Below, one piece after another: positions 9,839 through 25,088 of a stretch of 45,841 nt of DNA. The position numbers were made by a program, and so were the translations under genes. The DNA is taken from NCBI GenBank assembly GCA_015057615.1, contig SVEA01000121.1, positions 1-45,841 on the forward strand, given 5' to 3'. Numbering within the stretch: the stretch's first letter is position 1; every line of letters starts with the position of its first letter. The notes under the pieces are model-generated. The model did not search any database. It had not been told where the DNA came from and saw only the letters and a program-made list of their open reading frames with translations. Source of the DNA: Lachnospiraceae bacterium (GTDB lineage Bacteria > Bacillota > Clostridia > Lachnospirales > Lachnospiraceae).

Positions 9839-9844
9839 ATTTTT

Positions 9845-9911
9845 CCTCATTTCTGCACGGCTTTTTGCATATCTTGGAGTTTGTGGATGCCGCGCGGACG
9901 CAAACTCTGTA
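9845..9911 (-). promoter_or_regulatory. Leader element A, copy 1 (pseudoknot-capable, carries the ribosome site)
   Basis: On the transcript strand: arm GAGTTTGCG (9907-9899), then GCGCGGC (9895-9889), then CACAAACTC (9885-9877), a 15-base A-rich linker, then GCCGTGC (9861-9855), then AGAAATGAGG and six bases to the GTG start. The first and third parts form stem 1. The loop strand GCGCGGC pairs with the downstream GCCGTGC (one G-U), giving an H-type pseudoknot that abuts the ribosome site. Confidence 0.75.
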
Positions 9912-9945
9912 ATTGAAATAATTTAAATTTATTCAATTTTCTCTC

Positions 9946-10323
9946 TTACCTAATTGATGTATATTGTATCCTTTCGATATTTCCTTTCGTATTATATTGA
10001 TAGCTTTTTCGATACTCTGTAGCTTCTATTTTATAATCCATAATTTTTTCTGCTTTGTGCTCCTGCTTACGGATAAGATAACCGTTGACCTCAATATCAT
10101 ATTCCAGTTCATGAAATAAGGAGGCTATTAGCTTTGCATTGGATATGACATCTTCCTCTTCTATATATTGCTCATAGAAAACCGTATCCTCTGCCTTCCA
10201 ACCTTCCCGAATTGCAGTGATCGACGTATCAATCTCTAATATTTCTTTCATAAATAAGAATAAGCCTAGAACAAATAGAAGCGTCGAAAAAAACATCCGA
10301 ATTAATTTCGTTACATCTGTCAT
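9946..10323 (-). CDS. Small single-span pilin-like protein
   Basis: 125 aa from ATG 10323. An upstream in-frame ATG at 10335 lies within the ribosome site GGAGGAAG, so the later start fits better. The start MTDVTKLIRMFFSTLLFVLG has the same layout as its three neighbours (a D-x-TK motif, then one membrane helix). The middle holds EEDVISNAKLIASLFHEL and DIEVNGYLI, matching the neighbours' 'G.EV.NLI.....Y..I.V' motif. It lacks the class III prepilin (Flp) cleavage motif. It is the most diverged of four paralogues, and a minor-pilin role is an inference. Confidence 0.65.
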   Translation of the reverse strand: MTDVTKLIRMFFSTLLFVLGLFLFMKEILEIDTSITAIREGWKAEDTVFYEQYIEEEDVISNAKLIASLFHELEYDIEVNGYLIRKQEHKAEKIMDYKIEATEYRKSYQYNTKGNIERIQYTSIR

Positions 10324-10370
10324 ATCTTCCTCCACATTCCGCTGATAACAGTGGCATAACTATTTCCGCT

Positions 10371-10817
10371 TTATTTCTGGCGGAATCGAATACCCAGGAG
10401 TACATCATTTTCGTTAATATCTAATTCGCCGTAGAACAATGCCGTTGGTTTAATATAATTTTCATGCGTAAAGTTCTGAAGGCTCCTTATTTGTGTTCCG
10501 TTTATATAGGTATTTTCCTTGGTCATTGTTTTTACATAGATATAAATAGGCGCCGTTTCCTCCGCTTCAAAATCTCCTAATTTTTTACGAATTATATTTA
10601 CCACATCACTTCCATAGACCTCACAATGATCAAACCACTTTATGTCACTATCCTTTAAATCATTATTCAGTGAAATCATTTGTGCGATCGCAGTTTCATT
10701 CAAATTTCTTGCTGTTCGCATTGCGGAAAATCCCAGCATTACTAAAATACAGGTTATTAGGGTCGCTGCTGCTAATATCATTATCTTTGTAGCATCGGTA
10801 ATATGGTTTGTTCTCAC
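10371..10817 (-). CDS. Small single-span pilin-like protein
   Basis: 148 aa from GTG 10817. An in-frame ATG at 10916 would add 33 residues, but those are translated from the leader element. GTG follows GAGG by six bases, and the product then aligns with its paralogues at residue 1 (MRTNHITDATKIMILAAATL versus MRANQMTDVTKVFILVATVI). A membrane helix spans about 9-30. The middle motif is GSDVVNIIRKKL, then IYIYVKT. It ends with NPTA-like 'IKPTALFYGELDINENDVLLGI', again shared with the paralogues ('INP.A...G...... I.I.F'). It is probably a fibre or pseudopilin subunit of the Tad-like machine. Confidence 0.7.
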   Translation of the reverse strand: MRTNHITDATKIMILAAATLITCILVMLGFSAMRTARNLNETAIAQMISLNNDLKDSDIKWFDHCEVYGSDVVNIIRKKLGDFEAEETAPIYIYVKTMTKENTYINGTQIRSLQNFTHENYIKPTALFYGELDINENDVLLGIRFRQK

Positions 10818-10823
10818 TTTTGA

Positions 10824-10890
10824 CCTCGTTTCTGCGCGGCTTATTACGCATTCCGGAGTTTGCGGATGCCGCGCAGACACAAACTCTCTG
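10824..10890 (-). promoter_or_regulatory. Leader element A, copy 2
   Basis: Transcript order: GAGTTTGTG (10886-10878), TGCGCGGC (10875-10868), CGCAAACTC (10864-10856), linker, GCCGCGCA (10841/10840-10833), AGAAACGAGG, six bases, GTG. Stem 2 is 8 bp and perfect, with a U-A pair extending it where other copies have a mismatch. Stem 1 is 9 bp with one G-U. The ribosome site is GAGG at 10824-10827. Confidence 0.75.
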
Positions 10891-10992
10891 TAAAAAATCG
10901 CTTTTCTTTCTGCCAACGCCGCATTCCATCGTCAAAGGCGGCATAAAACCTAAGGTAAGGGGAACGCCAAGCCAATGCCTGAATACCTGTTG

Positions 10993-11487
10993 TTACGGCT
11001 GTTGTTCAAAATGAATGCAAATGATTGCTCCGTTATCATCTTTGCAGGTATTCCCGAGGTACATTGCCATCGGATTGATATAGCCATACTCCTGTTTTTT
11101 TGTTGCAGCTGTCGTATTGGGAACCTGACCCTGCGGTCCCTCTTCCTCTAATCTCTTTCCTTCCCGATCAGCAACATAGACATAATTATAGGTGGTGAAG
11201 TCCCCATTTAATGTTTTTACTTCAATTGCAAGATACTGTTTCTCATCAACCGCCTCTTTGATCAGGCTGATTACTTCGCTGCCGGGAATTAGGCTCCCTT
11301 CATACAGGGATAGATCAATTTCACTGTACTGACCTTGAAGCTCATTAAATTTATTTGTATTTACCTGAATGGATGATTTTCCATTCGCAACAAGCTTAAA
11401 CCCCAATGCACATAATAGACAGACAATGATTACTGTAGCCACCAGGATGAACACCTTGGTTACATCCGTCATTTGATTTGCTCTCAT
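10993..11487 (-). CDS. Small single-span pilin-like protein
   Basis: 164 aa from ATG 11487 (MRANQMTDVTK). The longer in-frame start at 11532 runs back into the preceding gene and makes an N-terminus unlike the paralogues. One membrane helix (VFILVATVIIVCLLCALGF) is followed by KSSIQVNTNKFNELQGQYSE, then IDLSLYEGSLIPGSEVISLI and YLAIEVKT. The C-terminal GYINPMAMYLG and ICIHF are shared with the 168-aa paralogue. The gap to the upstream gene is 20 bases. Between this gene's stop and the next leader element lies about 100 bases with a GCCGCC/GGCGGC-type hairpin. It lacks an Flp-type G|xxxxEY site. Confidence 0.75.
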   Translation of the reverse strand: MRANQMTDVTKVFILVATVIIVCLLCALGFKLVANGKSSIQVNTNKFNELQGQYSEIDLSLYEGSLIPGSEVISLIKEAVDEKQYLAIEVKTLNGDFTTYNYVYVADREGKRLEEEGPQGQVPNTTAATKKQEYGYINPMAMYLGNTCKDDNGAIICIHFEQQP

Positions 11488-11507
11488 GGTTTTTCTCTTT
11501 CTAACAC

Positions 11508-12014
11508 TTAAATCTGGGTAAACTTGATGCAAATGATGACACCATTCGCATCTTTGTAAACTTTACCGGTAAATTGGGCGGCAGGATTAATGTAATCACT
11601 CGATTTTTTATCTGCTTTCAATTGCGTATCAGCGTTATCCTTGATCATATCTCCAAGAGATGCGGCGGTACTCGTATTTGAATCTGGATCTTTAAATTCA
11701 TAATTATAGTCCCTATATGTATTTGCTTTACTTGCTTTTGTATTAACGGTAATAGAAAGATAACTCTCGCTTTCAATTGCTTTCCGTATCAGGTTGGTAA
11801 CTTCGCTTCCCTGCACGTTAGCACCGTCATAGATTGCTAAGTCGATATCACTGTACTGACTGGTCATATTGTTAAAATTATTGGTACTTGCATTGACGGA
11901 TGATTTTCCTTCGTTCACCATCTTAAAGCCTACGGCGCATAATACGCAAACCACAATAACGGTTGCCACCAGAATTAGTACTTTTGTTGCATCTGCCATA
12001 TTATTTGTTTTCAT
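11508..12014 (-). CDS. Small single-span pilin-like protein, first of the tandem array
   Basis: 168 aa from ATG 12014. The in-frame ATG at 12026 is inside the leader element's ATGAGG, so it is the ribosome site rather than the start. N-terminus MKTNNMADATKVLILVATVI, one membrane helix to about residue 30, then KSSVNASTNNFNNMTSQYSD, IDLAIYDG and GSEVTNLIRKAI. The C-terminus reads YINPAAQFTGKVYKDANGVI. It is closely related to the 164-aa neighbour, which points to tandem duplication. As first and best-led gene of the array it is the likeliest major subunit. Confidence 0.75.
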   Translation of the reverse strand: MKTNNMADATKVLILVATVIVVCVLCAVGFKMVNEGKSSVNASTNNFNNMTSQYSDIDLAIYDGANVQGSEVTNLIRKAIESESYLSITVNTKASKANTYRDYNYEFKDPDSNTSTAASLGDMIKDNADTQLKADKKSSDYINPAAQFTGKVYKDANGVIICIKFTQI

Positions 12015-12020
12015 TGATCT

Positions 12021-12085
12021 CCTCATTTCTGCGCGGCTTTTTTTAATCCTAGAGTTTGTGATTTCCGCGCGGACACAAACTCTGT
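12021..12085 (-). promoter_or_regulatory. Leader element A, copy 3
   Basis: Transcript order: GAGTTTGTG (12082-12074), GCGCGG (12070-12065), CACAAACTC (12060-12052), A-rich linker, GCCGCGC (12037-12031), AGAAATGAGG, six bases, ATG. Stem 1 is 9 bp and perfect. Stem 2 is GCGCGG/CCGCGC, 6 bp and perfect. Confidence 0.8.
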
Positions 12086-12163
12086 GAGTAGAATTTTATT
12101 TTCTGTAAGTGAATTTCAATCGGAACCTCTTTATCCATATTGCAGGACATAGCATATCTTGGT

Positions 12164-12430
12164 TTGAGTGTCAAAAGCCTTCTTAACAAATCGTCTCCAT
12201 CATTTTGCACAAATCAAAGAACTACTTAAGTAATAGGAAACAATATTTTACTTCGCAACTGTTTGAAGTCGTTGGCACGTACCATTACGTACTTCAATTC
12301 AAGTATTGCGTTTTTTGCAATGCTTTTGGGAACATGTGTTGCGAATGAAATTTGTTTCCTATTACTTGTCAACACATAGATTGTGCAAATTGACGAAGTC
12401 GAGTTTATAAATCAGCTTTTGACACTCTAA
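12164..12430. repeat. Nested palindromic repeat, copy 2 (~267 bp)
   Basis: Outer arms GAGTGTCAAAAGC (12166-12178) and GCTTTTGACACTC (12415-12427) are perfect over 13 bp. Inner arms (ATTTTGCACAAATC at the left, GATTGTGCAAATTGACG at the right) follow. The core hairpin ATTGC-GTTTTTT-GCAAT (12305-12321) matches ACTGC-GTTTTTT-GCAGT of copy 1 with a C-G to T-A pair swap. The middle differs by a deletion of about 27 bases. It lies between the TadB-TadC fusion gene and the pilin-like array, upstream of leader element A copy 3. Confidence 0.8.
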
Positions 12431-12447
12431 TCAATATCCTGTAGTAA

Positions 12448-14463
12448 CTAGATATTCTGCATTGCTTCCTGAAACATCTGAAGCTCTTCAATACTTGCCA
12501 GTAAGAGCGGTAAGGTCAGGTAAGCCATAACAAAGCCAGTCGGAAGCCACGACAGCGGTTTTGCTATATCCGCCCGTTTCTGTACGGAGATTTCATTCTC
12601 CTGTTTCCTGCGATCATGGTAATTCTCCCGGTCGGAGGAAATCTCATCAAATGCCTTCTCCATGGACATCACATCGCACCGGATCAGATTATCTACCAAA
12701 CGCTGAAAAGGAGGGTAGCTTTCCTTTTCCCTAAGGCGGGTCAATGCCTCGATTTCACCGCTATTATAGTTGTTGATACACTCCTGAATGGATTGCTTAA
12801 ATACTACGGCAAATAGTTCCAACTCCTCCAGGAGATCTTTGACTGTGATATGATCAATATACATTGACATATAAATGATGGAATGAAACTGATTTACTTC
12901 GTCCTCCATACTCATCAGTAGTACTTTCTTTTTAAAAAGCAGCATCCAGTAAGGGATATAATAAGCAATGAGAGCAATTCCAAAGCAGAGGATAAGCTCA
13001 TACCACTTAAGGTATTCCTGCCGGTACTGCTTCACCCTTTCAAAAATCAGTTCCGCTACGCTCTCATTCCGGCGAGTGTTATAAAAGACTTTTTCTTCTT
13101 CCAGCTCCTGTAGTATTTTCTCTTTCGTCAATTCCCCCTTATCTTTATATAAATTTACCTTCTCCAGAATCATCTCCTCCATCCTTTCCCGCTGACTTTG
13201 ATTCATTGCCATAAATTCAGAGGATAGGGTCGGTACACTGGTTAATATAATGGTTCGATTATTCTGATGGATGTAGAATATTAATAAAAGTGACAGGCTG
13301 AACGCAAATGTTGATGTGATCATTCTTTTTAGAAGCAGTTGCCTTGGGGAGATTGATTCTCCCATGCGTTTTAAAGTATCTCTTAAGTGGACCAACTTTC
13401 CATAATGCTTTTCCGAATAATTATCCAGTGCCTTTTTGATTACTTTTACCTTCTCCAGCTTCTTTAGGTACCGGTATTCTTTTGGCAGAAGCTGCCTGGT
13501 TTCTTTCAGATGATTGTTTAATACATAGACTGCCATTGTCGTAATCAGAGTGGCTGTTACTAAGAGGATGCCCGGCTTACCATTATAGAAAGCATTCAGC
13601 TCCGGCATCATAGATATCCCAAATTTCCGGATCGCGTCAATCGGAATAATCGCTGCAATCGTGACGAAGGTTACACCGGAGAACAGAAAGCTTAGCTTCT
13701 TCTGTTTTAGTAATTCCATATTGATTTCTTTTTTCAAATTTTCAATATTCGCAGTAAAGAGAAACTGTCCATGCACTTTTTTATCCGAATATTCGAGAAC
13801 CCCTACGCAAAGTGACAAAAACATCTTTAGGTATTTGTTATGCGTTGCCGCATTATACTTCGCGATCTCTTCCTTTAGATTATTGGATACCAGAATTTCA
13901 TATAATTTTGCCGCATGTACTTTCATTTCATAGCCCAATCCGTCCATTGCATTGAGAATGGCATCATCCACCATCCGGTTGACATGATAATTGTGCCGTA
14001 CCTCCGAAAGGAAAATCACCATATCTTCGAATAGTCTTGTTTCGGTCCTATGAATCATGAAGCTGATGATTTCATTATTAATGACATAGATTAGGATTAT
14101 TCCTACCCATAGATTATTAAAATTCGGGTTCCGAAGGTATAAAAAGCCTGCCGCGATCAAACAGGTAAGCCATGTTACCAGTGTTGTTCTTACGGTTTGG
14201 ATTGCGGTTTCTTTTTCCTCTCCGGGATACAATATTTCATACCTTCGGGTGATTTTCTTCATATAGGTTTTTGCAGGAGGAAACTTATTTAGCATGCTAT
14301 AGATTCGAAGCAGCGTTCGATTTTTATTCTTTTTTGCTGACAGCGATGCCCCGAAATTTTCTTTTCTCTTATCCCTTCGTTCGATATTGCAAAGGATTCC
14401 TATCACAATCGGAAGAACAACGGCTAAAGCGATTCCAGTAACAAATAGTAATTGTTTATCCAT
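12448..14463 (-). CDS. TadB-TadC fusion, inner-membrane platform protein
   Basis: 671 aa, about twice the size of a single TadB or TadC. It has hydrophobic segments at about 5-25, 95-135 and 255-315 in the first half, and 370-395, 485-510 and 635-655 in the second. Each half shows the T2SSF-type pattern of a cytoplasmic helical block between membrane segments (for example ETRLFEDMVIFLSEVRHNYH and EVNQFHSIIYMSMYIDHIT). T2SSF proteins form the membrane platform on which the secretion ATPase works. The start overlaps the stop of the ATPase gene by 8 bases. The downstream neighbour is the palindromic repeat and then the pilin-like array. Confidence 0.8.
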   Translation of the reverse strand: MDKQLLFVTGIALAVVLPIVIGILCNIERRDKRKENFGASLSAKKNKNRTLLRIYSMLNKFPPAKTYMKKITRRYEILYPGEEKETAIQTVRTTLVTWLTCLIAAGFLYLRNPNFNNLWVGIILIYVINNEIISFMIHRTETRLFEDMVIFLSEVRHNYHVNRMVDDAILNAMDGLGYEMKVHAAKLYEILVSNNLKEEIAKYNAATHNKYLKMFLSLCVGVLEYSDKKVHGQFLFTANIENLKKEINMELLKQKKLSFLFSGVTFVTIAAIIPIDAIRKFGISMMPELNAFYNGKPGILLVTATLITTMAVYVLNNHLKETRQLLPKEYRYLKKLEKVKVIKKALDNYSEKHYGKLVHLRDTLKRMGESISPRQLLLKRMITSTFAFSLSLLLIFYIHQNNRTIILTSVPTLSSEFMAMNQSQRERMEEMILEKVNLYKDKGELTKEKILQELEEEKVFYNTRRNESVAELIFERVKQYRQEYLKWYELILCFGIALIAYYIPYWMLLFKKKVLLMSMEDEVNQFHSIIYMSMYIDHITVKDLLEELELFAVVFKQSIQECINNYNSGEIEALTRLREKESYPPFQRLVDNLIRCDVMSMEKAFDEISSDRENYHDRRKQENEISVQKRADIAKPLSWLPTGFVMAYLTLPLLLASIEELQMFQEAMQNI

Positions 14464-16285
14464 CCTGCACCTCCTTGAGACTTCTGTGAAAGGTCAAAAA
14501 CTGCTCTTTTTCCTTTTCGGTTAAGCTCCTGCATATTTTCTGAACACTGCGTTCACTAAAAGAATTCTTACACACATATCTTCCATTCTCATAGACAATG
14601 AGATCTCTCGTCCGGTAGGTCCTCCTTCTTGCCATTCTTTTAAGAGCCTCCATCAGACAGTCATGATAATCCTCCGGCCATACTTCCTCCTTGGAAAGCG
14701 GAACGATTTCGGTAATATGGCTGATAAACCGATGTCCATCCCCCGATTTTTCCCAATGAATATCAAGATTAATTGAGCCGGCAACCTGTTCCTCTGCTAC
14801 CTGCTCATTCGTGAAGGTTCCGCAGGAAAGCGTTGCATTACGAAAATATTCCACTAAATCATTGGTAGAAACACAATGACAAGTGCACATTGTTGATTTC
14901 GTCCCTGCCTGCGTTAGGGTGATGTAGGAGTTCGCCAGTGGAAAGGAGGCAACCTCTCCTAAAATCATAATTGCAGCATCGGTCTTTTTCTGCAGATTAA
15001 TCGATTCAATGATTCCGACCTCCTCGGTGCTTCGAAAGCTTGCGATATTTAGATGCGGATAGGTATTATTCAACCACAATTCAAATTCCTGCTCGGTCGT
15101 ACGAATGGGATACCGTTGGTCAATAAACTGTACCATGGCTTTCAGAAAGGTTGTCTTACCGGAGTTCTGATCTCCGGACAAAATCATGTTAAGACATCCC
15201 TTCACTGCCCATTTTACTAATTCAATGACCGCTTCTTTCCCGGTATCATTCACCAGCGTTTCGATCGGCATCCGCTTGGCACTATCAAACTTGCGGACAA
15301 AAAATGCCCACCCGCTCGTAAGCTTAGGCCTTACTACCACGACGCGGCATCCATCCTGCAAGTAATTTAGCTTATATCCGTTCGTCGAAGTCAGATGCCC
15401 CACATTATCAAAGAGATAAAGGTTTTTACATACACGAATCAATTCGCTCCTACAGCCAAAGGTTAGAAAGGACAGATGAATTGGTTTTCCATGCAGGAAC
15501 ACCCAGAAACTGTCAAAGGTATACTTATTGGTCACATCCTGCGATTGCATAATCTCTTCCATATAATTGTACTGCCCGGAGGTTATACCGGATACTCCTC
15601 CGCTGCATCCGTCGATGTTCATATCCCGGATTTCATCCATAATGGAGAATCCGTACGTTTCCTGATAGATGCGCTGTGTCAAGACCTCCAGCTTATCCAT
15701 ATAGGTGGGATTCTTTGCAAATCTTTCATAGGCATGGTTGATATCCTCCTTGTTCACCTCGTAGTGAATGCCGAACGAATTCTCTTTTTCTGCTTCAAAA
15801 TGGCAATGCTCACTCAGCATTGCAAAAGCATCCTTACGGTATTCCTGCTTATACTGCTGCAACAATATCTCAAATTTATCCTGGGAGGACAGCTTCTGCG
15901 GCTTTTGAAACGGTATGACCCGGTCAATCGTATCTTCACTAATCTGCAGATTGTTCTGCAGTAATTCCTTGATATAATCCTTTACATATTCCTTCTCCCC
16001 AAGGTTTCCCTGCGCACAGGAACGAAGAGCGTTCTTAAGCCGTACCTTCTGCCTTTCCCGCTTCTTTGTCTCGGTCTTATTCAAATAAAGCTCGGCAATA
16101 TTTTGATTGGTAATTCCGTTAAACAGCATCCGAATGGATTCTTTTAAATAAGAAATGGCGAAGATATCTACCGAATCCTGCTCTTCCTCCGGCTCCAGAT
16201 CCTTCTTAAAGATAAAATAGATGGTTAGAAGAACGAATGCCGTTACCAGAGCGATGATTATTGTATTACCATGCGGATAATTCAT
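14456..16285 (-). CDS. tadA: TadA/CpaF-type secretion ATPase with N-terminal membrane anchor
   Basis: 609 aa from ATG 16285. An open frame extends to 16447, but it would lie inside the upstream gene, and AAGGA precedes this ATG. Residues 8-26 (TIIIALVTAFVLLTIYFIF) form a membrane anchor, which is uncommon for TadA. Walker A is GDQNSGKTT at 371-379. The Walker B-like segment AAIMILGEVAS (437-447) matches CpaF 'IIVGEVRG' but lacks the Arg. CTCH at 467-470 corresponds to the His box. It powers assembly of the fibre together with the TadB-TadC fusion. It overlaps the upstream gene by 20 bases and the downstream one by 8. Confidence 0.85.
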   Translation of the reverse strand: MNYPHGNTIIIALVTAFVLLTIYFIFKKDLEPEEEQDSVDIFAISYLKESIRMLFNGITNQNIAELYLNKTETKKRERQKVRLKNALRSCAQGNLGEKEYVKDYIKELLQNNLQISEDTIDRVIPFQKPQKLSSQDKFEILLQQYKQEYRKDAFAMLSEHCHFEAEKENSFGIHYEVNKEDINHAYERFAKNPTYMDKLEVLTQRIYQETYGFSIMDEIRDMNIDGCSGGVSGITSGQYNYMEEIMQSQDVTNKYTFDSFWVFLHGKPIHLSFLTFGCRSELIRVCKNLYLFDNVGHLTSTNGYKLNYLQDGCRVVVVRPKLTSGWAFFVRKFDSAKRMPIETLVNDTGKEAVIELVKWAVKGCLNMILSGDQNSGKTTFLKAMVQFIDQRYPIRTTEQEFELWLNNTYPHLNIASFRSTEEVGIIESINLQKKTDAAIMILGEVASFPLANSYITLTQAGTKSTMCTCHCVSTNDLVEYFRNATLSCGTFTNEQVAEEQVAGSINLDIHWEKSGDGHRFISHITEIVPLSKEEVWPEDYHDCLMEALKRMARRRTYRTRDLIVYENGRYVCKNSFSERSVQKICRSLTEKEKEQFLTFHRSLKEVQDG

Positions 16286-17117
16286 CTCGTTCGTTCCTTT
16301 CCTCCAGATCAATTTCAATTCCTGCAAGCTTACTAATTTTCTCGGTCGATTTTTTAGCCTCTTCGATAAAAAACAGATTTTCATCATTCTTACAGCAGCC
16401 AAGATTATCCTTGATAAATTCGGCTGCCCTTCCGTCACAGAGAGCATCCCGAAAAGAGGTATGATAGGGAATCACTCCGGAATTGCTGGCTTTTAGATAT
16501 TTGCGATAATGCCTGCGAATATTGTTTATATTATATTTCGAGTTGTCGTCATAGCAGCCAATAAGATAAAACACCTTCTGCTTAGTTAAATTCGGATAAT
16601 TTGATAGACAGGCTTCGATCAAACCTGTATTTTGGCTAAGATTAATGACGATTACATCCGAAGCCTCCAGTATTTTATGCGACAACGGATGCTTCCCGGA
16701 GCACACATCGATAAAAACCACATCCACCAGTTCTTCCATGGTACGTAACAGCTTCAAGATCACCATATTCATTTCATATTCAAAGGAAGCCTGATTCCTC
16801 TTCGAGGTTCCAGGAAGAAGACTGACTTTTGTGTTCGGGATGGAAATACAGCAGTTTTCAAGGTCCTCTCTCGTTAATTTTCCTGCCTTAAAGCTGCGAA
16901 CCAGGGCATCCAGCCCGACATCCTGAAAATATCCGCTGGAATCCGCATTCTTTGCATTTCTTCCAACCAAGGGCGCTTCCAGATTATTTAACATAAAATG
17001 CGTATGCGTCAGTAAACATCTCTTTCGATACAGAATCCCGGTAATCAAAGCATTTGCTAACATATTGCTGGTAGCTCCCGTCTGTCCGTGCACCGGCGAC
17101 CAATATGCAATTTTCAC
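16266..17117 (-). CDS. TadZ/CpaE-like MinD-fold protein
   Basis: 283 aa, GTG start at 17117 after GGAGGG. It begins MKIAYWSPVHGQTGATSN, a MinD/ParA P-loop in which the usual Lys residues are replaced, so nucleotide binding may be weak or altered. VVFIDVCSG (about 135) stands at the Walker B/switch position. DVIVINLSQN (about 160) is the next core strand typical of the family. TadZ/CpaE proteins localise Tad pilus machinery. It is a paralogue of the 280-aa gene at 19048 (MKIAFWSNARQCGVTSN). Its GTGA start overlaps the stop of the preceding gene, so translation is coupled. Confidence 0.75.
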   Translation of the reverse strand: MKIAYWSPVHGQTGATSNMLANALITGILYRKRCLLTHTHFMLNNLEAPLVGRNAKNADSSGYFQDVGLDALVRSFKAGKLTREDLENCCISIPNTKVSLLPGTSKRNQASFEYEMNMVILKLLRTMEELVDVVFIDVCSGKHPLSHKILEASDVIVINLSQNTGLIEACLSNYPNLTKQKVFYLIGCYDDNSKYNINNIRRHYRKYLKASNSGVIPYHTSFRDALCDGRAAEFIKDNLGCCKNDENLFFIEEAKKSTEKISKLAGIEIDLEERNERDELSAW

Positions 17118-17797
17118 TTTCCTTCCCTCCTTCTTGCACGGCGGTAAGCCGTTTTTGTCTGGTTGAAATTGATCTCCGGATGAAGCTTCTTTACTTCTTC
17201 CAGTAAATATTTCTTCCGTGCCTTTGATATTCCTTTCAGCCGGAACGAGCCGTTGTAATGGTAAACCAGACCATTCGTATAATCTCTTTCATCATGATAA
17301 AGAATGGAAATATGCTCCGAAGGAATGGACAGCCCCATTCTCTCCACCAGAATATCCGGGGTGATTTTAATCGGCGCAGCATCCTTAATGAGAAGCTCCT
17401 GCTCTATTTTGTTACTAGCATCGCATACCATGCTTGTATCAGTTATCCTGGCACAATTGTAGCGGTACAAATCAGTTACAAAAATAATCCTGTTACAGCA
17501 GGCAATATCCGAATCCTTCTTCTGAAAACCGCAATAAATCAGAATATCATCATATTCTTCCCTCATTGCCTGGTTGATTTCCTGCGTAGTAAAGTCCACC
17601 TTCCGGTAAGTAATGATCTCCTTATGACAATCCATTCCTCTCGGCTGCGGTATGGAATACTGAACAGACAAGCTTTCCGAATGATCCATCACAAGAACTT
17701 TCTTCCCTAGCTTCGAAAGGATTCGTGACAGGTAAAGTATATTATCAAAATTATCAATCCCGATATAAGCAACTATATTACTCACCAAATTCAACAT
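17114..17797 (-). CDS. Degenerate MinD/TadZ-like protein
   Basis: 227 aa. Residues 1-40 (NIVAYIGIDNFDNILYLSRILSKLGKKVLVMDHS) look like the start of a MinD-type fold with no P-loop. YDDILIYCGFQ and IIFVTDLYRYN stand where the core strands would be. It ends in a very basic tail (TKTAYRRARRREGK). The start overlaps the CpaB-like gene by 20 bases, and the end overlaps the next gene by 4. I infer a non-catalytic partner of the two TadZ-like proteins. The family assignment is tentative. Confidence 0.6.
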   Translation of the reverse strand: MLNLVSNIVAYIGIDNFDNILYLSRILSKLGKKVLVMDHSESLSVQYSIPQPRGMDCHKEIITYRKVDFTTQEINQAMREEYDDILIYCGFQKKDSDIACCNRIIFVTDLYRYNCARITDTSMVCDASNKIEQELLIKDAAPIKITPDILVERMGLSIPSEHISILYHDERDYTNGLVYHYNGSFRLKGISKARKKYLLEEVKKLHPEINFNQTKTAYRRARRREGK

Positions 17798-18824
17798 CCT
17801 CCTCCTTCGCTTGTTCTTCCTGTGAATAGAACAGATAGTCCGGTGTATTCACAGCTTCCTCCGAAGAAACCTCCGGCGTATCATGCGCCATTTCTTTTTC
17901 CGGCTCTTCGGAAATTTCTTCGTTTGCATGGGCATCTTCCCCCCCCTTTGTAAGTGAGGAATCCGGCTGCATATCATCCGATGGGAACGACTGGTTGGGA
18001 TTGATATCCCACTCGATCTCAGAAACATCCAGTTCCATACTTGCTGCCAAACGGTTCTCCAAGGCTTTCCGAATTTCCTTATTCCGTTCCTGGGAACAGC
18101 GCTCGACAATATTCGGGTCACTCTCCAGCAAGGAAAGAATCGAAAGACTGGGAACATAATTTACAATGGATGCCTCTTGAATACTCGGCTCAATGTATTT
18201 TGTTATATGAAGCTCCGCTCCCGAGTATAGAACGGCATCCACGATGGCAGCAGACATTCTTAACAGTTCCTCCTCATCCAGCCAAAAGTAGCAGACAGCT
18301 GTCTCAGGACTGATCCCCCGGATGATCTTTTTGGATAGCACCACGAAGCTTTCTCCGTTCGGGTAGGTGATTCGTACATCCACCGTGTCATTGCCGTCTA
18401 TATTGGAGCTGATATTTATAACACTAAACTCCGATTCTCTTAGCTCGGATGACACCTTATTTTCCGCCAGCATACTGCTAATAATCTGGGTTCCTGCTGC
18501 AATATCGACTAAGGCAACCTCCCCTCCTTCCAGGTTTCTTTGATAGGTTTCTTCCGGCTGTGACGTATAGACAACCCTTTCCTCAATATGCTCCTTCGTT
18601 ATATAGTCCCCTGCCTTAATGTCTGCAACTGCCACATACACCTTATGCCGGTTTCTTTCTATCTCAAGGTAGGCTTTCTCCAGCTGTGCTTCATATTCCT
18701 CCTTAATCTGCCCGGTTATCAGCAGGGAAGTAAATACCGCAGCTCCTCCGATTACAACAATACAAATGATAGCAACAATCAAATATTGCTTTGTTGATCT
18801 TTTTAATTTCTTTCGAATTATCAT
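17778..18824 (-). CDS. cpaB: CpaB/RcpC-like SAF-domain protein
   Basis: 348 aa. After a basic start there is one membrane segment (QYLIVAIICIVVIGGAAVF). Then comes a SAF domain: KVYVAVADIKAGDYITKEHI, then VALVDIAAGTQIISSMLA, which is the diagnostic pattern of Flp pilus assembly protein CpaB. The C-terminal 70 residues are strongly acidic (EEISEEPEKEMAHD..., EEQAKEEDVEFGE) and probably disordered, unlike typical CpaB. In diderm bacteria CpaB works near the secretin; in this apparent monoderm it would act on the outer face of the membrane. The start overlaps the preceding gene by 4 bases. Confidence 0.8.
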   Translation of the reverse strand: MIIRKKLKRSTKQYLIVAIICIVVIGGAAVFTSLLITGQIKEEYEAQLEKAYLEIERNRHKVYVAVADIKAGDYITKEHIEERVVYTSQPEETYQRNLEGGEVALVDIAAGTQIISSMLAENKVSSELRESEFSVINISSNIDGNDTVDVRITYPNGESFVVLSKKIIRGISPETAVCYFWLDEEELLRMSAAIVDAVLYSGAELHITKYIEPSIQEASIVNYVPSLSILSLLESDPNIVERCSQERNKEIRKALENRLAASMELDVSEIEWDINPNQSFPSDDMQPDSSLTKGGEDAHANEEISEEPEKEMAHDTPEVSSEEAVNTPDYLFYSQEEQAKEEDVEFGE

Positions 18825-20057: not shown

Positions 20058-20131
20058 TATTTGATTGAATATAATATTACATGATATTTTTTGGTGATAT
20101 TTGTATAATTTCAACAATGTCTTTACATAAT

Positions 20132-20180
20132 AAAAATTCCCGGCAAGAAACTTGTTGACTTTGATAGGTTTCCTGCCGGG
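20132..20180 (-). terminator. Rho-independent terminator after the LysM/GH18 gene
   Basis: On the minus strand CCCGGCAGGAAAC (20180-20168) pairs with GTTTCTTGCCGGG (20151-20139), a 13-bp stem with one mismatch, followed by AATTTTTA. It insulates the LysM gene from the Tad promoter. Confidence 0.75.
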
Positions 20181-20287
20181 TCTCTGTCTAATTTTACTGC
20201 TCTCTCAGATGTATTAGAAACAAACTCCTCCGGTAAGAACTTGTCCGGAACCCATCCGATCGAAATAAAGCTGTCTGTATCCGCTTT

Positions 20288-21568
20288 TTAAATAATTTTT
20301 ATAATATTATACCTGGAATTAATAATCAACCATAAGCTATAGAAAAATGTCATGATATTCCATACAGAAATCGCATTTAATTCATATTGCTCCACCAATT
20401 GAATGTAGGCATTCATGCTCCGTGCATCCTTAAACCGTACAAAAAACTCCCTTCCAAATTCAGAATAGGTAAATAAAGCAGATTCTGTCAAGGTATCATA
20501 TTGAATTGGAATATCAAAGCTTCTTGCCAATTGTACGGCTGCTGCATTAGAAATCGCATTTCCCTGCGAGATACACTCCTTATAAGGAAGCTCCCAGAGA
20601 TACCCTACGGTTGATATGCCAAATTGCACTTTTTCGGGGGAAAGTATCTCCAAAGCTCTTTGTACCAATTCCTTCACCGTATGAAAGTCAATTGCACCCA
20701 CCGGAAATCCGCTCACCATCCCCATCTCATAGGTTAAAAGAATGCTGCCATCAAGGATTGTGCTTGGATTAAAGGTGCTCGGCATAGAATACATGACACC
20801 GGAGATCAATTCAAAGGCATTCGGATTCAATATGATAAAAGTAAGCAATCCTCTTTCCTCTAATCGAAGGGCAAGCTTATGAATAAAGTCTATATACAAT
20901 TGCCGGTAAGTCGGATAAATATAACGGGAATTAAAGCTGAGTCCCATATACCCTTTTGCTTCCATCCTGTAGATCACATGTGCTATAAATTGATTCTGTA
21001 CGCTTTCCTCCGTGAGAAGGCGGCGACCAAAATCATTTCCATCTGTGGCTGTCATGTCTTCGAAGCTTAACTGCATGATTGGTGCTACCCCATATTCTTT
21101 CGCAATTTGAATAATGGCAGTATCATTAATATCCGTTAATTCTCCCTCCGGGGTAATGGTATACCGATATATTGTTAAATAGGTCAGGAAGGGTAATGTT
21201 TTCCGAAGTATATTAAGGTTAATAAATGGGTAGGCAAAACCGTTTACTGCTATGGAGCCGATTTTTTGATCCGTATAGCGGATGACAATCGAATCGCCGG
21301 GATATAGAAATCCCTGATCGGCTAGATAAGTGTTGTTTCGAAGCAGCTCCATTACGGTCACATCAAAGGCTTCTGCAATGCTTTCTATGGTATCCCCTTC
21401 CATAACCGTATAGACTACTTCCGGAAAAAGTATGACATAGGTATCTCCCACAACCAACTGATTGGGGACATCGATTCCGTTCTCCCGAATTAACCATTCT
21501 TCTGATATTCCGTAAAGCTCTGCAATGGAATGGATTGTCTCGCCCGGCTGTACTACATGTATTATCAT
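20288..21568 (-). CDS. LysM plus GH18-fold (SleL/YaaH-like) protein, catalytic Glu replaced
   Basis: 426 aa. Two LysM domains (residues 2-47 HVVQPGETIHSIAELYGI; 52-97 YTVMEGDTIESIAEAF) bind peptidoglycan. A GH18-type barrel fills about 105-415, as in spore-cortex hydrolases SleL/YaaH. The active-site strand, normally of the form G(V/I)(N/D)(I/F)DFEY, here reads GLSFNSRYI (209-217). The catalytic Glu is replaced by Arg215 and the neighbouring Asp by Asn. It is therefore probably a non-hydrolytic binder. Start ATG 21568 follows GAGGAAATTT. It has no signal peptide, as in several spore-coat YaaH proteins. Its own terminator follows. Confidence 0.8.
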   Translation of the reverse strand: MIIHVVQPGETIHSIAELYGISEEWLIRENGIDVPNQLVVGDTYVILFPEVVYTVMEGDTIESIAEAFDVTVMELLRNNTYLADQGFLYPGDSIVIRYTDQKIGSIAVNGFAYPFINLNILRKTLPFLTYLTIYRYTITPEGELTDINDTAIIQIAKEYGVAPIMQLSFEDMTATDGNDFGRRLLTEESVQNQFIAHVIYRMEAKGYMGLSFNSRYIYPTYRQLYIDFIHKLALRLEERGLLTFIILNPNAFELISGVMYSMPSTFNPSTILDGSILLTYEMGMVSGFPVGAIDFHTVKELVQRALEILSPEKVQFGISTVGYLWELPYKECISQGNAISNAAAVQLARSFDIPIQYDTLTESALFTYSEFGREFFVRFKDARSMNAYIQLVEQYELNAISVWNIMTFFYSLWLIINSRYNIIKII

Positions 21569-21625
21569 AAATTTCCTCTTAACAGGTCTTTATTTCAATA
21601 TATGCAGGGAGGAGGCTTAAATATA

Positions 21626-22096
21626 TTATTTTAGATGTTTTTCTGCGATATCCATCAGTTCCATGAATTTATCCGCATCGCCTCCGCTGTCCGGATGGTA
21701 TCGCTTGCATAATTCACGAAATCGCTTCTTAATCCTATTTTCATCCGAGCCAAACGGCAGACCCAGATAATTTAACAGCTCCGGACTTGCCCATTCCCCC
21801 ATTGGCAGCCCCTGCTCTTTATAAATCTGGTAATAGACCGTAAACCAATACTCGTCAATGACCTCTTTTAATGCGGCTTTGTCCATTTTCTCCAGGGTTT
21901 CTAAATTATAGCGGGCTTCGCATTTCCTCCTGCATTTCTCCTGCAGATTAAAAAAGATGTGCCAAATCAAAGAATCTGCTTTTTTCTCTAAAGCTGTCCG
22001 GTTCTGAATTACAAAATCATAGGTGTAGCCGTAACGTATTACAAACTCCATAATTTTAAGCTCTCTGATTTTATGCTTTAATTCCCTTCTGCTCAT
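21626..22096 (-). CDS. J-domain (DnaJ-like) protein
   Basis: 156 aa from ATG 22096. A GTG nine bases upstream (22105) is also possible, and the ribosome site is weak. The J-domain is at the C-terminus: LGLPFGSDENRIKKRFRELC, then KRYHPDSGGDADKFMELMD, with the HPD signature that stimulates Hsp70 ATPase. The N-terminal 100 residues are helical and basic (RRELKHKIRELKIMEFVIRYG). C-terminal J-domains of this form are found in small Firmicutes proteins of unknown client range. It stands alone between the ABC ATPase and the LysM gene. Confidence 0.75.
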   Translation of the reverse strand: MSRRELKHKIRELKIMEFVIRYGYTYDFVIQNRTALEKKADSLIWHIFFNLQEKCRRKCEARYNLETLEKMDKAALKEVIDEYWFTVYYQIYKEQGLPMGEWASPELLNYLGLPFGSDENRIKKRFRELCKRYHPDSGGDADKFMELMDIAEKHLK

Positions 22097-22147
22097 AAAA
22101 AACACATCCCATATTTATTCGGAAACTCTGGTATTGCACCTAATTCA

Positions 22148-22882
22148 CTATCTGGTTACTCTCTTTAAAAATTCCTTCGTTCTTTCCTGCTTCGGATTAT
22201 TAAAGATTTCCTCCGGCGTTCCCTCTTCGGCGATAACCCCCTGGTCCATAAAAACAACCCGGTCCGATACCTCCCTGGCAAATTGCATCTCATGCGTTAC
22301 CACGAGCATGGTAAGACCGCTCTCCGCAAGTTCCTTCATGACAGTAAGCACTTCCCCGACCATTTCCGGATCCAGGGCGGAAGTTGGCTCATCAAAAAGC
22401 ATCACATCCGGCTCCATGGAAAGAGCTCTTGCAATCGCTACTCTCTGCTTTTGTCCTCCGGACAGCTGCTTTGGTTTTGCTTGAATATACTGGCTCATTC
22501 CAACCACATCCAGATACTTCATAGCAACCTCTTCCGCTTCCTTCTTGGACCGCTTTAATACCTTTGTCTGACCTACCACACAATTATTTAATACATCATG
22601 ATTATTAAACAGATTAAACTGCTGAAATACCATTCCAAGCTTTGTCCGGTAAGCATAGATATCATGCCGGTCCTCCAAAATATTCTGACCCTGATAGATG
22701 ATTTCACCGCCACTTGGTTTTTCTAAAAGGTTAATGCAGCGCAGCAGTGTAGATTTCCCGGATCCGGAGGGACCAATGATACAGACAACTTCCCCTTTAT
22801 TTACAGAAAAATCAATATCCTTAAGGATTTCATTTGTCCCAAAGGATTTCTTTAAATGTTGAATCTCGATTACTTTCTCCAT
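22148..22882 (-). CDS. Amino-acid ABC transporter ATP-binding protein (GlnQ/HisP type)
   Basis: 244 aa from ATG 22882. An in-frame ATG at 22894 lies only two bases after AGAAAGG, too near for a ribosome site, and the sister permease shows the same AGAAAGG-N13-ATG layout. Walker [10 protein letters not shown] (about 33-41), Q-loop, signature [15 protein letters not shown] (about 130-144), Walker [14 protein letters not shown] and switch VTHE are all intact. It energises uptake with the permease at 23094 and the lipoprotein at 24132. Some 210 bases separate it from the permease, holding a hairpin (23014-23054) and leader element B. Confidence 0.9.
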
Positions 22883-22890
22883 TTTAATAA

Positions 22891-22936
22891 CCATTGCCTT
22901 TCTTCAAAGCCTGCAGACTTTGTGCCGCAGGCACAA
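22891..22936 (-). promoter_or_regulatory. Leader element B, copy 1
   Basis: Transcript order: TTGTGCC-TGC-GGCACAA (7-bp hairpin), then AGTCT, GCAGGCTTTGAAGAAAGG and CAATGG. GCCTGC can instead pair with the downstream GCAGGC, so the two folds exclude each other or form a pseudoknot through the loop. Related copies are at 31061 and 45794. Confidence 0.6.
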
Positions 22937-23093
22937 TTCACGTGCAAAAAATCTTAATTCTCCCCATAATGCCCTTTACGGCACCTCAAAAACCCGGAAG
23001 AACAAGGAGTGAGCATCCACATGCGAATTTCGCAGTTCTTCTCGTGTGAAGATGTTTTTTCTTTATACTTTTCAGTTTACATCAACCGGCATT

Positions 23094-23855
23094 CTATCTC
23101 CGTCTTTGGGCATCCTCCGGTCTTTGAACCTGCATCTGGTTACCGGGAATAATATTAAAATTATCCGGTCCATCCAGTCTTCGTTCCAAAAGACGTAAGA
23201 TACGCGTTACCGTAAGTGTCATAATTAAGTAAAAGATACAGGTAATAAAATAGGTTTCAAAATACCGGAAATTATTGCCTGCAATAGATTTTGCCTGGAA
23301 GAACAGCTCCGTAACCGCAATTACATTTAATACCGAAGTATCCTTGATATTAATCACGAATTCATTGCCAACAGCAGGCAGTATATTCCGAATCACCTGA
23401 GGTAATACCACATTCCACATCGTCTTAATATGGTTCATACCGATGGCATGCGCTGCCTCAAACTGTCCCCGGTCAATGGAAATAATCCCGCCCCGGACGA
23501 TTTCTGCAATGTATGCACCAGTGTTGATGGATACAATAAAAACAGCTGCAAAATTCCGATTCATATCAATTCCCAAAAACAACGGGGCACCGTAGTAGAT
23601 CGTCGATGCTTGAACAATCATAGGAGTTCCGCGAAAGAACTCCACATAGATCGTTAAAATCACGTTAATAATTTTCAGGATCACTCGGTTAAATCCATGA
23701 TCCGGCATCGGTATCGTACGAATTGATCCAATAAGCAGACCGATGATCGTACCGATGATCGTACCAATAATCGAGATAAAGAGCGTCATACCGGCTCCCC
23801 GCAGAAACATCGGCCAATAGGAGATAATGATATTCGCTAACCACTCCCAAGTCAT
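23094..23855 (-). CDS. Amino-acid ABC transporter permease (HisM/GlnP type)
   Basis: 253 aa from ATG 23855 (MTWEWLANIIISYWPMF). The frame extends to a TTG at 23867, which AGAAAGG does not favour. About five membrane helices. The EAA loop is EAAHAIGMNHIKTMWNVVLP (about 146-165). YVEFFRGTPMIVQ (about 75) and GAYIAEIVRGGI (about 118) are standard for the polar amino-acid (HAAT) permease family. It pairs with the ATPase and the lipoprotein to form an importer. The preceding lysine riboswitch makes lysine the probable substrate. Confidence 0.9.
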   Translation of the reverse strand: MTWEWLANIIISYWPMFLRGAGMTLFISIIGTIIGTIIGLLIGSIRTIPMPDHGFNRVILKIINVILTIYVEFFRGTPMIVQASTIYYGAPLFLGIDMNRNFAAVFIVSINTGAYIAEIVRGGIISIDRGQFEAAHAIGMNHIKTMWNVVLPQVIRNILPAVGNEFVINIKDTSVLNVIAVTELFFQAKSIAGNNFRYFETYFITCIFYLIMTLTVTRILRLLERRLDGPDNFNIIPGNQMQVQRPEDAQRRR

Positions 23856-24068
23856 AATTAGCACCAAACCTTTCTAAAATGTATGTTTAAAATTCCATGA
23901 AATATCACCTGATAGTTACCATTCTGCTTGAATATCAAAATTATCCCGTTTTTCCAGTAAATTCACGGAATTCTTGACATTCGTATCAAATAACAAGGTA
24001 TTTTTGACGTTCAAACATGGATACTTTTATCCAACCTATGGATTTTATGGTATTCCTATCATAACTAT

Positions 24069-24109
24069 GAGGCTGTCCAAATGATGTATTTTGGCTTTGG
24101 AACAGCCTC
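24069..24109 (-). other. Intercistronic hairpin between lipoprotein and permease genes
   Basis: GAGGCTGT-CCAAA and TTTGGAACAGCCTC form a 13-bp stem with one bulge. There is no good U-run on the minus strand, so it is more likely an mRNA-stabilising or partial attenuating hairpin that lets the binding protein be made in excess over the permease. Confidence 0.55.
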
Positions 24110-24131
24110 ACAAATCAGCACTTTCAATCGA

Positions 24132-25013
24132 TTACTTAGCTGACGGCTGGTTTACTATTGCAGTATCCATGATCTCCTGGCGCTCTTCTTCTGAAATTCC
24201 TGCCAGAATTTCATTGATTTGATCTTTAAGCTCGCTTCCCTTCTGAATACCAACCGCAATCGCAGTATCCTCCTCCGAAGTTTCGAAACCATCGGTAAAC
24301 TCTACCATTGTAAAGTTTTCATTTGCAGAAGAAGCACTAACGCCCTCTGGTCGTTCCGAAACATATCCATCAATGGTTCCCGCTTCCAAAGCGACACGCA
24401 TGGTAGGGAAATTATCCAATGCGGTTTCCTTAATAACTCCATCAATTTGGTCAATGACGGAATAATGGAATGTATTTAACTGCGCCGTAATCTTTGCTCC
24501 GGAAAAATCCTGGATCGAGGTAGCATTCTCATAGGGTCCGCCTTTTTTAACGACCATCACCAAATTAGATTTGTAGTAGATATCGGTAAAGTCAATGGTT
24601 TTCATACGTTTTGCTGTCGGGGACATGCCAGCGATAATGGCATCGATCTTCCCGGACAGTAACGCAGGTACCAGACCGTCCCATTCTGTCTTTACGATCA
24701 CGAGCTCTTTTCCTAAGCCTTCCGCTATTCTCTTGGCGATTTCCACATCATAACCGCCGGCAAATTCTGCATTTCCTTCCATCGGAACAGCGCCATTGTT
24801 ATTTTTAATCTGCGTCCAGTTAAACGGTGCATAGCCTGCCTCCATGCCCACCTTAAATGTATTGTTCTCAGAGGAATCCCCTTTATCCTCCGTTGTTCCT
24901 TGATTCTCCTGGTATGTATTTCCTCCAGGATTCTCCTCCTTCGTACCGCAGGCTGCAAAAACTAGAACGAACGATAGCACCATACCTGTCAAAGCTGCAA
25001 ATTTTCTTTTCAT
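24132..25013 (-). CDS. Amino-acid ABC transporter substrate-binding lipoprotein, probably lysine
   Basis: 293 aa from ATG 25013. An in-frame ATG at 25025 is the ATGAGG ribosome site of leader element A. Lipoprotein signal: MKRKFAALTGMVLSFVLVFA, then AC at the lipobox (FAAC). SBP_bac_3 fold: FKVGMEAGYAPFNWTQ at about 52, GGYDVEIAKRIAEGLG, TEWDGLVPALLSGKIDAIIAGMS-type core (about 110-133), and KRMKTIDFTDIYYKS. The linker is Gly/Asn/Glu-rich. It is the first gene of the transporter operon, behind a sigma-A promoter, an L-box riboswitch, a terminator and leader element A. Lysine specificity is inferred from the riboswitch. Confidence 0.9.
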   Translation of the reverse strand: MKRKFAALTGMVLSFVLVFAACGTKEENPGGNTYQENQGTTEDKGDSSENNTFKVGMEAGYAPFNWTQIKNNNGAVPMEGNAEFAGGYDVEIAKRIAEGLGKELVIVKTEWDGLVPALLSGKIDAIIAGMSPTAKRMKTIDFTDIYYKSNLVMVVKKGGPYENATSIQDFSGAKITAQLNTFHYSVIDQIDGVIKETALDNFPTMRVALEAGTIDGYVSERPEGVSASSANENFTMVEFTDGFETSEEDTAIAVGIQKGSELKDQINEILAGISEEERQEIMDTAIVNQPSAK

Positions 25014-25019
25014 AATTAA

Positions 25020-25088
25020 CCTCATTTCTACGCGGCATTTTTAATCATCATAGAGTTTATAGAAGCCGCGCGGACTTAAAAACTCTGC
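25020..25088 (-). promoter_or_regulatory. Leader element A, copy 4
   Basis: Transcript order: GAGTTTTTA (25085-25077), GCGCGGC (25071-25065), TATAAACTC (25061-25053), linker with AAAAA, GCCGCGT (25036-25030), AGAAATGAGG, six bases, ATG. Stem 1 keeps GAGTTT/AAACTC. Stem 2 is 7 bp with one G-U. It lies downstream of the L-box terminator on the same transcript. Confidence 0.75.

What the first reader, a model, noticed from the sequence alone, without database searches (positions are those of the whole stretch)
9845..25088. Dispersed pseudoknot-capable leader element carrying the ribosome site (element A)
Seen in sequence: four intact copies (9845-9911, 10824-10890, 12021-12085, 25020-25088) share the order stem-1 arm GAGTTT.., GCGCGG, complementary arm ..AAACTC, A-rich linker, GCCGCGC, AGAAATGAGG, then exactly six bases to the start codon (GTG, GTG, ATG, ATG). 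The loop strand GCGCGG pairs with the downstream CCGCGC, making an H-type pseudoknot that ends one to three bases before the Shine-Dalgarno. Variation between copies mostly keeps pairing (G-U swaps, an added U-A pair). The genes led are unrelated in sequence: an M50 peptidase, two pilin-like proteins and a lysine-binding lipoprotein. The layout is that of a translational switch, or of a mobile element that supplies a ribosome site. I do not recognise it as a named RNA family.
Basis: partly seen in the sequence, partly recalled or inferred. Interest (0 to 1): 0.82.

Follow-up and report, generated by a model that had tools for sequence, protein, structure and literature searches.

The report
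Mobile pseudoknot inserted at start codons
Some gut bacteria of the Lachnospiraceae carry dozens of copies of a small folded RNA element that sits between a gene's old ribosome-binding site and its start codon and brings a new ribosome-binding site of its own, so that unrelated genes come to be translated from a shared, spreading leader.

Summary
Confirmed: four copies on the minus strand, each six bases before a start codon, plus a degenerate fifth (3823-3879). No Rfam 15 family matches. This genome gives 144-148 matches; nine other genomes, chosen because they hold it, give 6-58 each. Both stems covary: in 34 selected sequences 93.5% of cells pair, 45 show double changes, and 0-1 of 500 shuffles do as well. 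Of 117 foreign loci chosen only by the downstream 17-mer, 81 form the pseudoknot (shuffles 7.7%). Genes led are unrelated. The element was gained: it lies behind lysine and SAM riboswitches here, while 14 of 16 and 23 of 24 readable genus leaders lack it. In five other genomes a ~95-nt unit (5' hairpin, pseudoknot, GAAATGAGG) has an SD-like motif just to its left in 65 of 74 copies (controls 9-15 of 74). At typA, 29 relatives lack the unit, and the nearest shows an SD-to-ATG empty site. Best reading: a mobile element lying between SD and start codon that carries a structurally insulated replacement SD. A translational switch is neither shown nor excluded. How it moves is unknown.

The parts
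9845..9911 (-). element A copy 1 (P1, P2, A-rich loop, GAAATGAGG), 6 nt before GTG at 9838-9836; leads an M50-like protein (8735-9838)
   Evidence: R2 84.8 bits; Pfam M50 below cut-off
10824..10890 (-). element A copy 2, 6 nt before GTG at 10817-10815; leads a small protein (10371-10817) without a family match above cut-off
   Evidence: (81.1 bits)
12021..12085 (-). element A copy 3, 6 nt before ATG at 12014-12012; leads a small protein (11508-12014) without a family match above cut-off
   Evidence: (79.5 bits)
12074..12083 (-). copy 3, P1 5' arm AGAGUUUGUG (10 bp with 12051-12060)
   Evidence: sequence; pairs supported
12051..12060 (-). copy 3, P1 3' arm CACAAACUCU
   Evidence: sequence
12065..12070 (-). 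copy 3, P2 5' strand GCGCGG inside the P1 loop
   Evidence: sequence; covariation
12031..12036 (-). copy 3, P2 3' strand CCGCGC
   Evidence: sequence; covariation
12021..12029 (-). copy 3, conserved GAAAUGAGG carrying the Shine-Dalgarno core GAGG
25020..25088 (-). element A copy 4, 6 nt before ATG at 25013-25011; leads a family-3 solute-binding lipoprotein downstream of a lysine riboswitch
   Evidence: 64.1 bits; A tail in 2 of 16 readable genus leaders
3823..3879 (-). fifth, degenerate copy, 6 nt before ATG at 3816-3814 of a protein (2743-3816) without an NCBIfam match at E 0.01
   Evidence: (25.5 bits)
25351..25533 (-). lysine riboswitch upstream of copy 4; shared with congeners that lack the element

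Best explanation
Element A is one family of small mobile (or otherwise copying) repeats whose sense strand is a structured leader RNA. The complete unit is about 95 nt: a 5' hairpin that begins (A)AGAGTGAAAGA or a relative, an H-type pseudoknot (P1 10 bp, P2 7-8 bp, A-rich loop 3), and GAAAUGAGG. SHOWN: in genomes with fresh copies the units sit between the old Shine-Dalgarno of a gene and its start codon, end about three bases before that codon, and carry a new Shine-Dalgarno at a nearly fixed six-base spacing, so the gene is left with an intact but different initiation site. INFERRED: the stable pseudoknot (or, in a minor class, a local hairpin made with the same 3' strand) keeps the new Shine-Dalgarno single-stranded and independent of whatever lies upstream. 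This makes insertion at such a sensitive place tolerable and lets one leader serve any gene. The old Shine-Dalgarno, now about 100 nt upstream, can at most start a short non-conserved reading frame. NOT KNOWN: the enzyme or process that copies the unit, and whether the host also uses the fold for regulation.
For: Copy number: 148 tails against 2 reversed controls; 144 model matches with 150 candidates scored; nine other genomes, reached through hits, with 6-58 each. Structure. Unrelated genes: 215 led proteins, only 57 in any similarity cluster; ten identified. Position: 105 of 119 own tails and 134 of 144 foreign tails have a start codon 5-7 nt on; 68 of 94 at exactly 6, against a largest class of 14 of 39 for plain GGAGG. 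Between SD and start: 65 of 74 hairpin copies in five genomes have an SD-like motif within 14 nt left of the unit, five control windows 9-15 of 74. Ends, measured in G172: per-base identity 0.92-1.0 in the first twelve bases of the unit against 0.33-0.64 to the left (after one A at 0.94); 0.89-1.0 in its last twelve against 0.33-0.58 from the fourth base behind GAGG. Empty site: at typA the unit is in 1 of 30 readable leaders; the nearest relative (97% aa) reads gaggagttattt-ATG where the carrier reads aaggagtta-[unit]-aaattt-ATG. Gain behind conserved riboswitches: lysine, 2 of 16 leaders with A; metK, 1 of 24. Turnover at orthologous sites between sister species.
Against: No transposase or other mobiliser was identified. 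Pfam Y1 transposase gave one short fragment in this genome; other transposase families were not searched. No new insertion was watched, and target duplications were not tested systematically; none is evident by eye. One empty site (typA) was read in detail. The clear SD-left-flank signal comes from five other genomes; in the window's own genome only 8 of 13 copies with a perfect 5' hairpin show it (controls 0-3 of 13), and the window copies have degenerate 5' parts. Insulation of the SD is inference; no expression data. 36 of 117 loci selected by the 17-mer do not reach the pseudoknot score of 13. Many copies are shared with the sister species (19 of 23 comparable), so movement in this lineage need not be recent.
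Confidence: 0.72

Rival explanations
1. A host regulatory RNA (riboswitch or protein-binding leader) with a very large regulon: the pseudoknot forms or melts on a signal and exposes or hides the ribosome site.
For: Compact H-type pseudoknot just upstream of the SD, like several riboswitch classes; P1 and P2 held by covariation across genera. A competing local hairpin (UGCGC with GCGCA) is possible in 24-49% of copies, depending on the test and set, above shuffled loops.
Against: Led genes are unrelated and differ between genomes. Most sampled genomes of the order gave no match (4 of 146 with one, this genome included). Loops 1 and 2 differ between subfamilies, unlike a ligand pocket. P2 does not pair with the SD itself. 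The competing hairpin shows no covariation: helices of 5 or more in 49% of own copies, 43.5% with partners swapped between copies.
Confidence: 0.2
2. A leader-peptide device: the old SD drives translation from the RTG near the 5' end of the unit, and the passing or stalled ribosome breaks P1/P2 and controls re-initiation at the new SD.
For: 72 of 74 units have ATG, GTG or TTG three bases from their start, mostly 5-7 nt behind the old SD; this triplet is part of the conserved unit, so the 72 are not independent. UGA in AAAUGAGG would allow coupling in one frame.
Against: The fate of that frame is not conserved: of 74, 34 stop inside the unit, 11 at the UGA, 16 run into the gene in frame, 11 run on out of frame, 2 have no start. 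Indels that shift the frame are seen among copies of the window's genome.
Confidence: 0.1
3. A hypothesis on movement rather than function: the unit is a non-autonomous IS200/IS605-type (Y1, REP-like) element moved in trans as single-stranded DNA; its subterminal hairpins are ends, GGAGG-like DNA is the target, and the terminal TGAGG is the matching right cleavage site.
For: Hairpins near both ends; target-like motif left of the unit and a similar motif at its right end; strand-specific insertion; a Y1 transposase fragment in the own genome. The IS200/IS605 rules are recalled.
Against: The gap between the left motif and the unit varies (0-8 nt, mode 3), whereas Y1 elements insert directly behind a fixed motif (recalled). 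The right end is nearly fixed relative to the start codon. No full Y1 gene with element-like ends was found, but only this genome was searched for Y1.
Confidence: 0.15
4. Ordinary conserved 5' leader inherited with its genes, with no copying.
For: Of 32 led genes of a sister species, 23 had a fetched own locus, and 19 of these have an A tail at the same place.
Against: Patchy distribution within one genus, absence from most orthologous leaders at metK, fhs, typA and the lysine transporter gene, and near-identical copies in front of unrelated genes.
Confidence: 0.03

Closest known systems
Pneumococcal BOX elements (PMC3049150 and PMC9453066, passages seen)
   Same: Small, modular, structured dispersed repeats in about 10^2 copies, transcribed, sometimes next to riboswitches.
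   Different: In the passages seen they are intergenic and are not described as lying between SD and start codon or as carrying a ribosome site; element A does both and has a covarying pseudoknot.
Mobile attenuators / BIME leaders (PMC2965389, passages seen)
   Same: Mobile-element RNA structures located upstream of unrelated genes.
   Different: Those are transcription terminators exapted from IS ends; element A has no terminator-like U run in its consensus and supplies a ribosome site.
Small H-type pseudoknot riboswitches (preQ1, SAM-II, guanidine-III; recalled)
   Same: Compact H-type pseudoknot with A-rich loop in the 5' UTR near the SD.
   Different: No Rfam match; P2 does not pair the SD; gene set unrelated; up to >100 copies per genome.
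IS200/IS605-derived REP or palindrome-associated elements (recalled)
   Same: Subterminal hairpins, strand-specific, small non-autonomous copies.
   Different: Here the place is the interval between SD and start codon with a variable gap; no full Y1 partner found.

Membership tests
Any Rfam 15 RNA family | covariance-model score at or above gathering cut-off | tested here: not met
   whole window: only the lysine riboswitch; 9700-12200 with E up to 10: four hits, all far below their gathering scores
H-type pseudoknot RNA (structural class) | two interleaved helices supported by compensatory changes | tested here: met
Metabolite riboswitch | conserved core shared by functionally related genes | tested here: not met
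   unrelated genes; loops vary between subfamilies
Metabolite riboswitch | ligand binding | not testable with these tools
   needs probing or binding assays
Mobile dispersed repeat (MITE/BOX-like) | many near-identical copies with sharp ends in unrelated places | tested here: met
   (ends measured in one genome)
Mobile dispersed repeat (MITE/BOX-like) | sites without the element in relatives | tested here: met
   typA 29 of 30, metK 23 of 24, fhs 22 of 24, lysine transporter 14 of 16 readable leaders without A tail
Mobile dispersed repeat (MITE/BOX-like) | identified mobilising enzyme | tested here: inconclusive
   only PF01797 searched, in the own genome: one fragment
IS200/IS605 or REP-like element | insertion directly behind a fixed tetra/pentanucleotide (recalled rule) | tested here: not met
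   SD-like motif left of the unit but gap 0-8 nt
Leader-peptide attenuator | conserved short reading frame | tested here: not met
   frame fates mixed; indels

The most novel reading that the evidence does not exclude
A new class of mobile element that homes to translation-initiation regions: several families (element A, and a second family D seen at the same site of typA in relatives) insert between the Shine-Dalgarno and the start codon. Each replaces the host ribosome site with its own structured, insulated one, so that translation of a sizeable set of genes is handed over to a spreading RNA and may be co-regulated by it.
Probability: 0.45. Interest if true: 0.93.

Novelty: new variant of a known kind. 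Interest (0 to 1): 0.84.

Why it matters
Small dispersed repeats are common, but I know of none that sits between the SD and the start codon and supplies a replacement ribosome site. If right, it is a natural, portable, context-independent translation start, useful as a tool. It is a way in which unrelated genes come to share one initiation signal. It would explain why many leaders in some Lachnospiraceae, a main gut family, look alike. It makes testable how a pseudoknot insulates a ribosome site and how such elements choose their place.

Tried and rejected
Coding origin of the unit: rejected, because indels and mixed frame fates do not keep a reading frame. A conserved regulon: rejected, few shared families among 215 led proteins. 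Phage or plasmid carriage: no plasmid match to one 83-base query. The same query matches 15 'phage' records; the ten listed are unannotated faecal contigs, and the three I opened lead an ACT-domain-like protein, a DnaB-like protein and a peptidase-like protein (names recalled from the sequence), so they look like bacterial DNA. The two viral-contig hits of the 17-mer show no start codon at 5-7 and no visible fold (fold not computed). A 28-base exact pattern gave 0 viral hits. A Y1/RAYT partner in the own genome: one fragment only. The ~270-nt repeat R upstream of many copies is a separate palindromic repeat. The alternative hairpin UGCGC/GCGCA occurs in only part of the copies and does not covary, so it is not used as the defining structure. 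Literature: nothing describing the element in the listings; some searches were for analogues.

Selections and misses: the pseudoknot test used 117 of 120 loci (dropped for N or contig edge), and an exact 17-mer also has chance hits in so large a collection (about 30 by my estimate; one search stopped at 120 rows). P2 counting used the 82 best of 111 rows. The 34 sequences of A7 were picked by me among high-scoring hits. The foreign-locus model search was given 100 of 120 loci. The order survey scored 36 candidates per genome with stricter filters, so it undercounts. The nine genomes were chosen because they held hits. In the sister comparison 37 loci gave 32 led genes; 9 had no own locus fetched. 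One search showed 23 of 30 typA leaders; one search tested all 30. One readable metK locus (L268) is a distant paralogue. Of 39 element copies read in G172, 34 pass the 5'-hairpin filter and 36 that, which is looser. Model R1 was built with a miscounted structure and not used; one search counted P2 one column off and is superseded.
Full report
OBSERVATION. The four copies are on the minus strand at the stated places, with GAGG followed by six bases and GTG, GTG, ATG, ATG. The tail 17-mer is far above chance in the window (4 against 0.05) and in the genome (148 against 2 reversed). A covariance model with P1 only (R2) gave 144 matches in the genome at E <= 0.1, with 150 candidates scored. A fifth degenerate copy lies at 3823-3879(-). 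The window belongs to an unnamed 4.07 Mb genome in 215 contigs.

STRUCTURE. P1 is 10 bp, P2 7-8 bp (UGCGCNGC with GCNGCGCA), loop 1 two to three bases, loop 3 A-rich and about 13-16 bases in the alignment. In those 34 selected sequences 93.5% of cells pair and 45 cells carry double changes. 0 of 500 shuffles reach the observed pairing, double-change cells or covariation score, 1 of 500 reaches the number of doubly changed pairs or of pair types, and slid versions pair at most 48.6%. Ascertainment-free test: of 117 loci from other genomes chosen only by the downstream 17-mer, 81 reach score 13 or more (P1 plus P2 pairs) against 7.7% of dinucleotide shuffles; 89 reach 12 against 15.5%. Within the own genome, where the aligning model knew nothing of P2 pairing, 550 of 648 P2 cells pair; 1000 shuffles of strands give mean 529.4 and maximum 542 (shuffles do not remove relatedness). 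Compensated P2 types include GCGCGGC/GCCGCGC, GCGCUGC/GCAGCGC and GUGCAGC/GCUGCAC, and, by my reading, GCGCAC/GUGCGC in faecal contigs. Copies below the pseudoknot score can instead form a local hairpin with the same 3' strand in 16 of 36 foreign and 19 of 32 own cases, controls 6-8%. No Rfam family matches.

POSITION AND GENES. A start codon stands 5-7 bases behind 105 of 119 own tails and 134 of 144 foreign tails (tails with up to 3 mismatches, chance ones included). Spacing is exactly 6 in 68 of 94 tails before ORFs in the own loci; plain GGAGG sites in the same loci are broader (largest class 14 of 39, at 7). The genes are unrelated: 215 led proteins, 57 in any similarity cluster, the largest being ABC-type proteins as I read them. 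Examples named by Pfam: SAM synthetase, a threonyl-tRNA-synthetase-like protein, ribosomal protein L9, a phosphoribosyltransferase, formate-THF ligase, an undecaprenyl-PP synthase, Cas2, FtsK, HPr and OMP decarboxylase.

GAIN AND TURNOVER. At the window's lysine-transporter gene, 17 of 26 genus genomes have the gene. Of 16 readable leaders only this genome and the sister G036 carry the A tail; 14 have a plain SD. The lysine riboswitch is detected in 12 of 16 loci scanned, and the terminator behind it is seen in the four leaders I compared. At metK this genome has the SAM riboswitch about 420 nt before the start codon, with element A at the end of that stretch; it is the only one of 24 readable leaders with the A tail (the riboswitch was confirmed with Rfam in two loci, and seen by eye in others). 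At fhs only this genome and G036 of 24 readable leaders have it. Between this genome and G036 (83 model matches), 32 led genes of G036 were examined: 23 have an own locus in hand, 19 share the tail and 4 do not. Differences include A versus a GC-rich hairpin leader, A versus another leader family (D), hairpin-only versus full pseudoknot, and a different A subfamily at thrS. In the order 4 of 146 sampled genomes, this one included, gave a match at the strict setting, whereas nine genomes reached through hits have 6 to 58 matches each.

INSERTION SITE. In genome G172 I read 40 stretches and found 39 copies with a similar pseudoknot. 34 of them have the 5' hairpin AGAGTGAAAGA..., giving a unit of about 95 nt, and left of it stands an SD-like motif in 32 of 34, against 3-6 of 34 in five control windows. 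The unit's ends are sharp: identity falls from 0.92-1.0 to 0.33-0.64 on the left, and to 0.33-0.58 three bases behind GAGG on the right. Identical full units occur up to four times in two other genomes, twice in G172. Over five genomes and several kinds of 5' hairpin the SD-like motif stands on the left in 65 of 74 copies, against 9-15 of 74, with the gap mostly 2-4 bases (G172 alone 32 of 36 with the looser filter). The unit therefore lies between the old SD and the start codon. At typA the carrier reads aaggagtta-[unit]-aaattt-ATG and its nearest relative (97% aa) gaggagttattt-ATG; of 30 readable leaders only the carrier has the A tail. Three have a D-like leader there by pattern (L447, L449, L455) and one more by eye (L458).

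MECHANISM. Shown: structure, position, dispersal, gain, one empty site read in detail. Inferred: the fold keeps GAAAUGAGG open and independent of upstream sequence, so that insertion at this sensitive place is tolerated; this is what the conservation of fold, tail and spacing under change of gene suggests. A reading frame from the unit's RTG is possible but not conserved. A switch is possible but unsupported. The mover is unknown; Y1 transposase was searched only in the own genome, giving one fragment. In the own genome the copies look older: 8 of 13 with a perfect 5' hairpin have the left motif (controls 0-3 of 13).

COMPARISON. Pneumococcal BOX repeats (PMC3049150, PMC9453066) and mobile attenuators (PMC2965389) are the nearest known kinds from what I read (passages). 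None of those passages describes a repeat lying between SD and start codon or bringing a ribosome site. Searches of the held papers listed no description of this element; most subscription papers are not held.

Noticed in passing
window 2295-2572 and 12165-12436; many own loci, and L331:507-778 of the sister genome: A second dispersed repeat (R), about 270 nt, imperfectly palindromic with ends like GAGTGTCAAAAGCC, often just upstream of element A but separate from it; MITE-like.
   Followed up: partly
L002, L022, L067 downstream of element A; L102; typA leaders L447, L449, L455, L458; metK of G032 (L247); fhs L280: Another leader family (D), ending AAAGG(A)GCATGGTTAT(AA) or similar before ATG, with hairpins upstream; it occupies the same SD-to-start interval in some relatives and can follow element A in tandem.
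   Followed up: partly
L062, L063, L078, L107: GC-rich hairpins (GCCGCCGTTGGCGGC-like) ending in CAGAAATGAGG or a similar SD just before start codons or further units: a third kind of leader module.
   Followed up: no
L078:2849-3099, L091:2001-2255, L110:501-667; also L507 and L510: Tandem arrays of two or three complete units (93-102 nt apart in the first three), the next unit starting where a start codon would be.
   Followed up: partly
L025, L027, L112, L119, L154: A subfamily of element A with an extra hairpin (TTGTCTCGTAAACGAGCCAACAA or similar) in loop 3.
   Followed up: no
window about 8735-18824(-): Tad/Flp-like secretion or pilus locus (weak TadA-like ATPase and CpaB-like matches) with three copies of element A between its genes.
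   Followed up: no
L120 (own genome, C25:14622-14789): C-terminal fragment of a Y1 (IS200-like) transposase; its frame runs to the end of the locus, perhaps a collapsed repeat at a contig end.
   Followed up: partly
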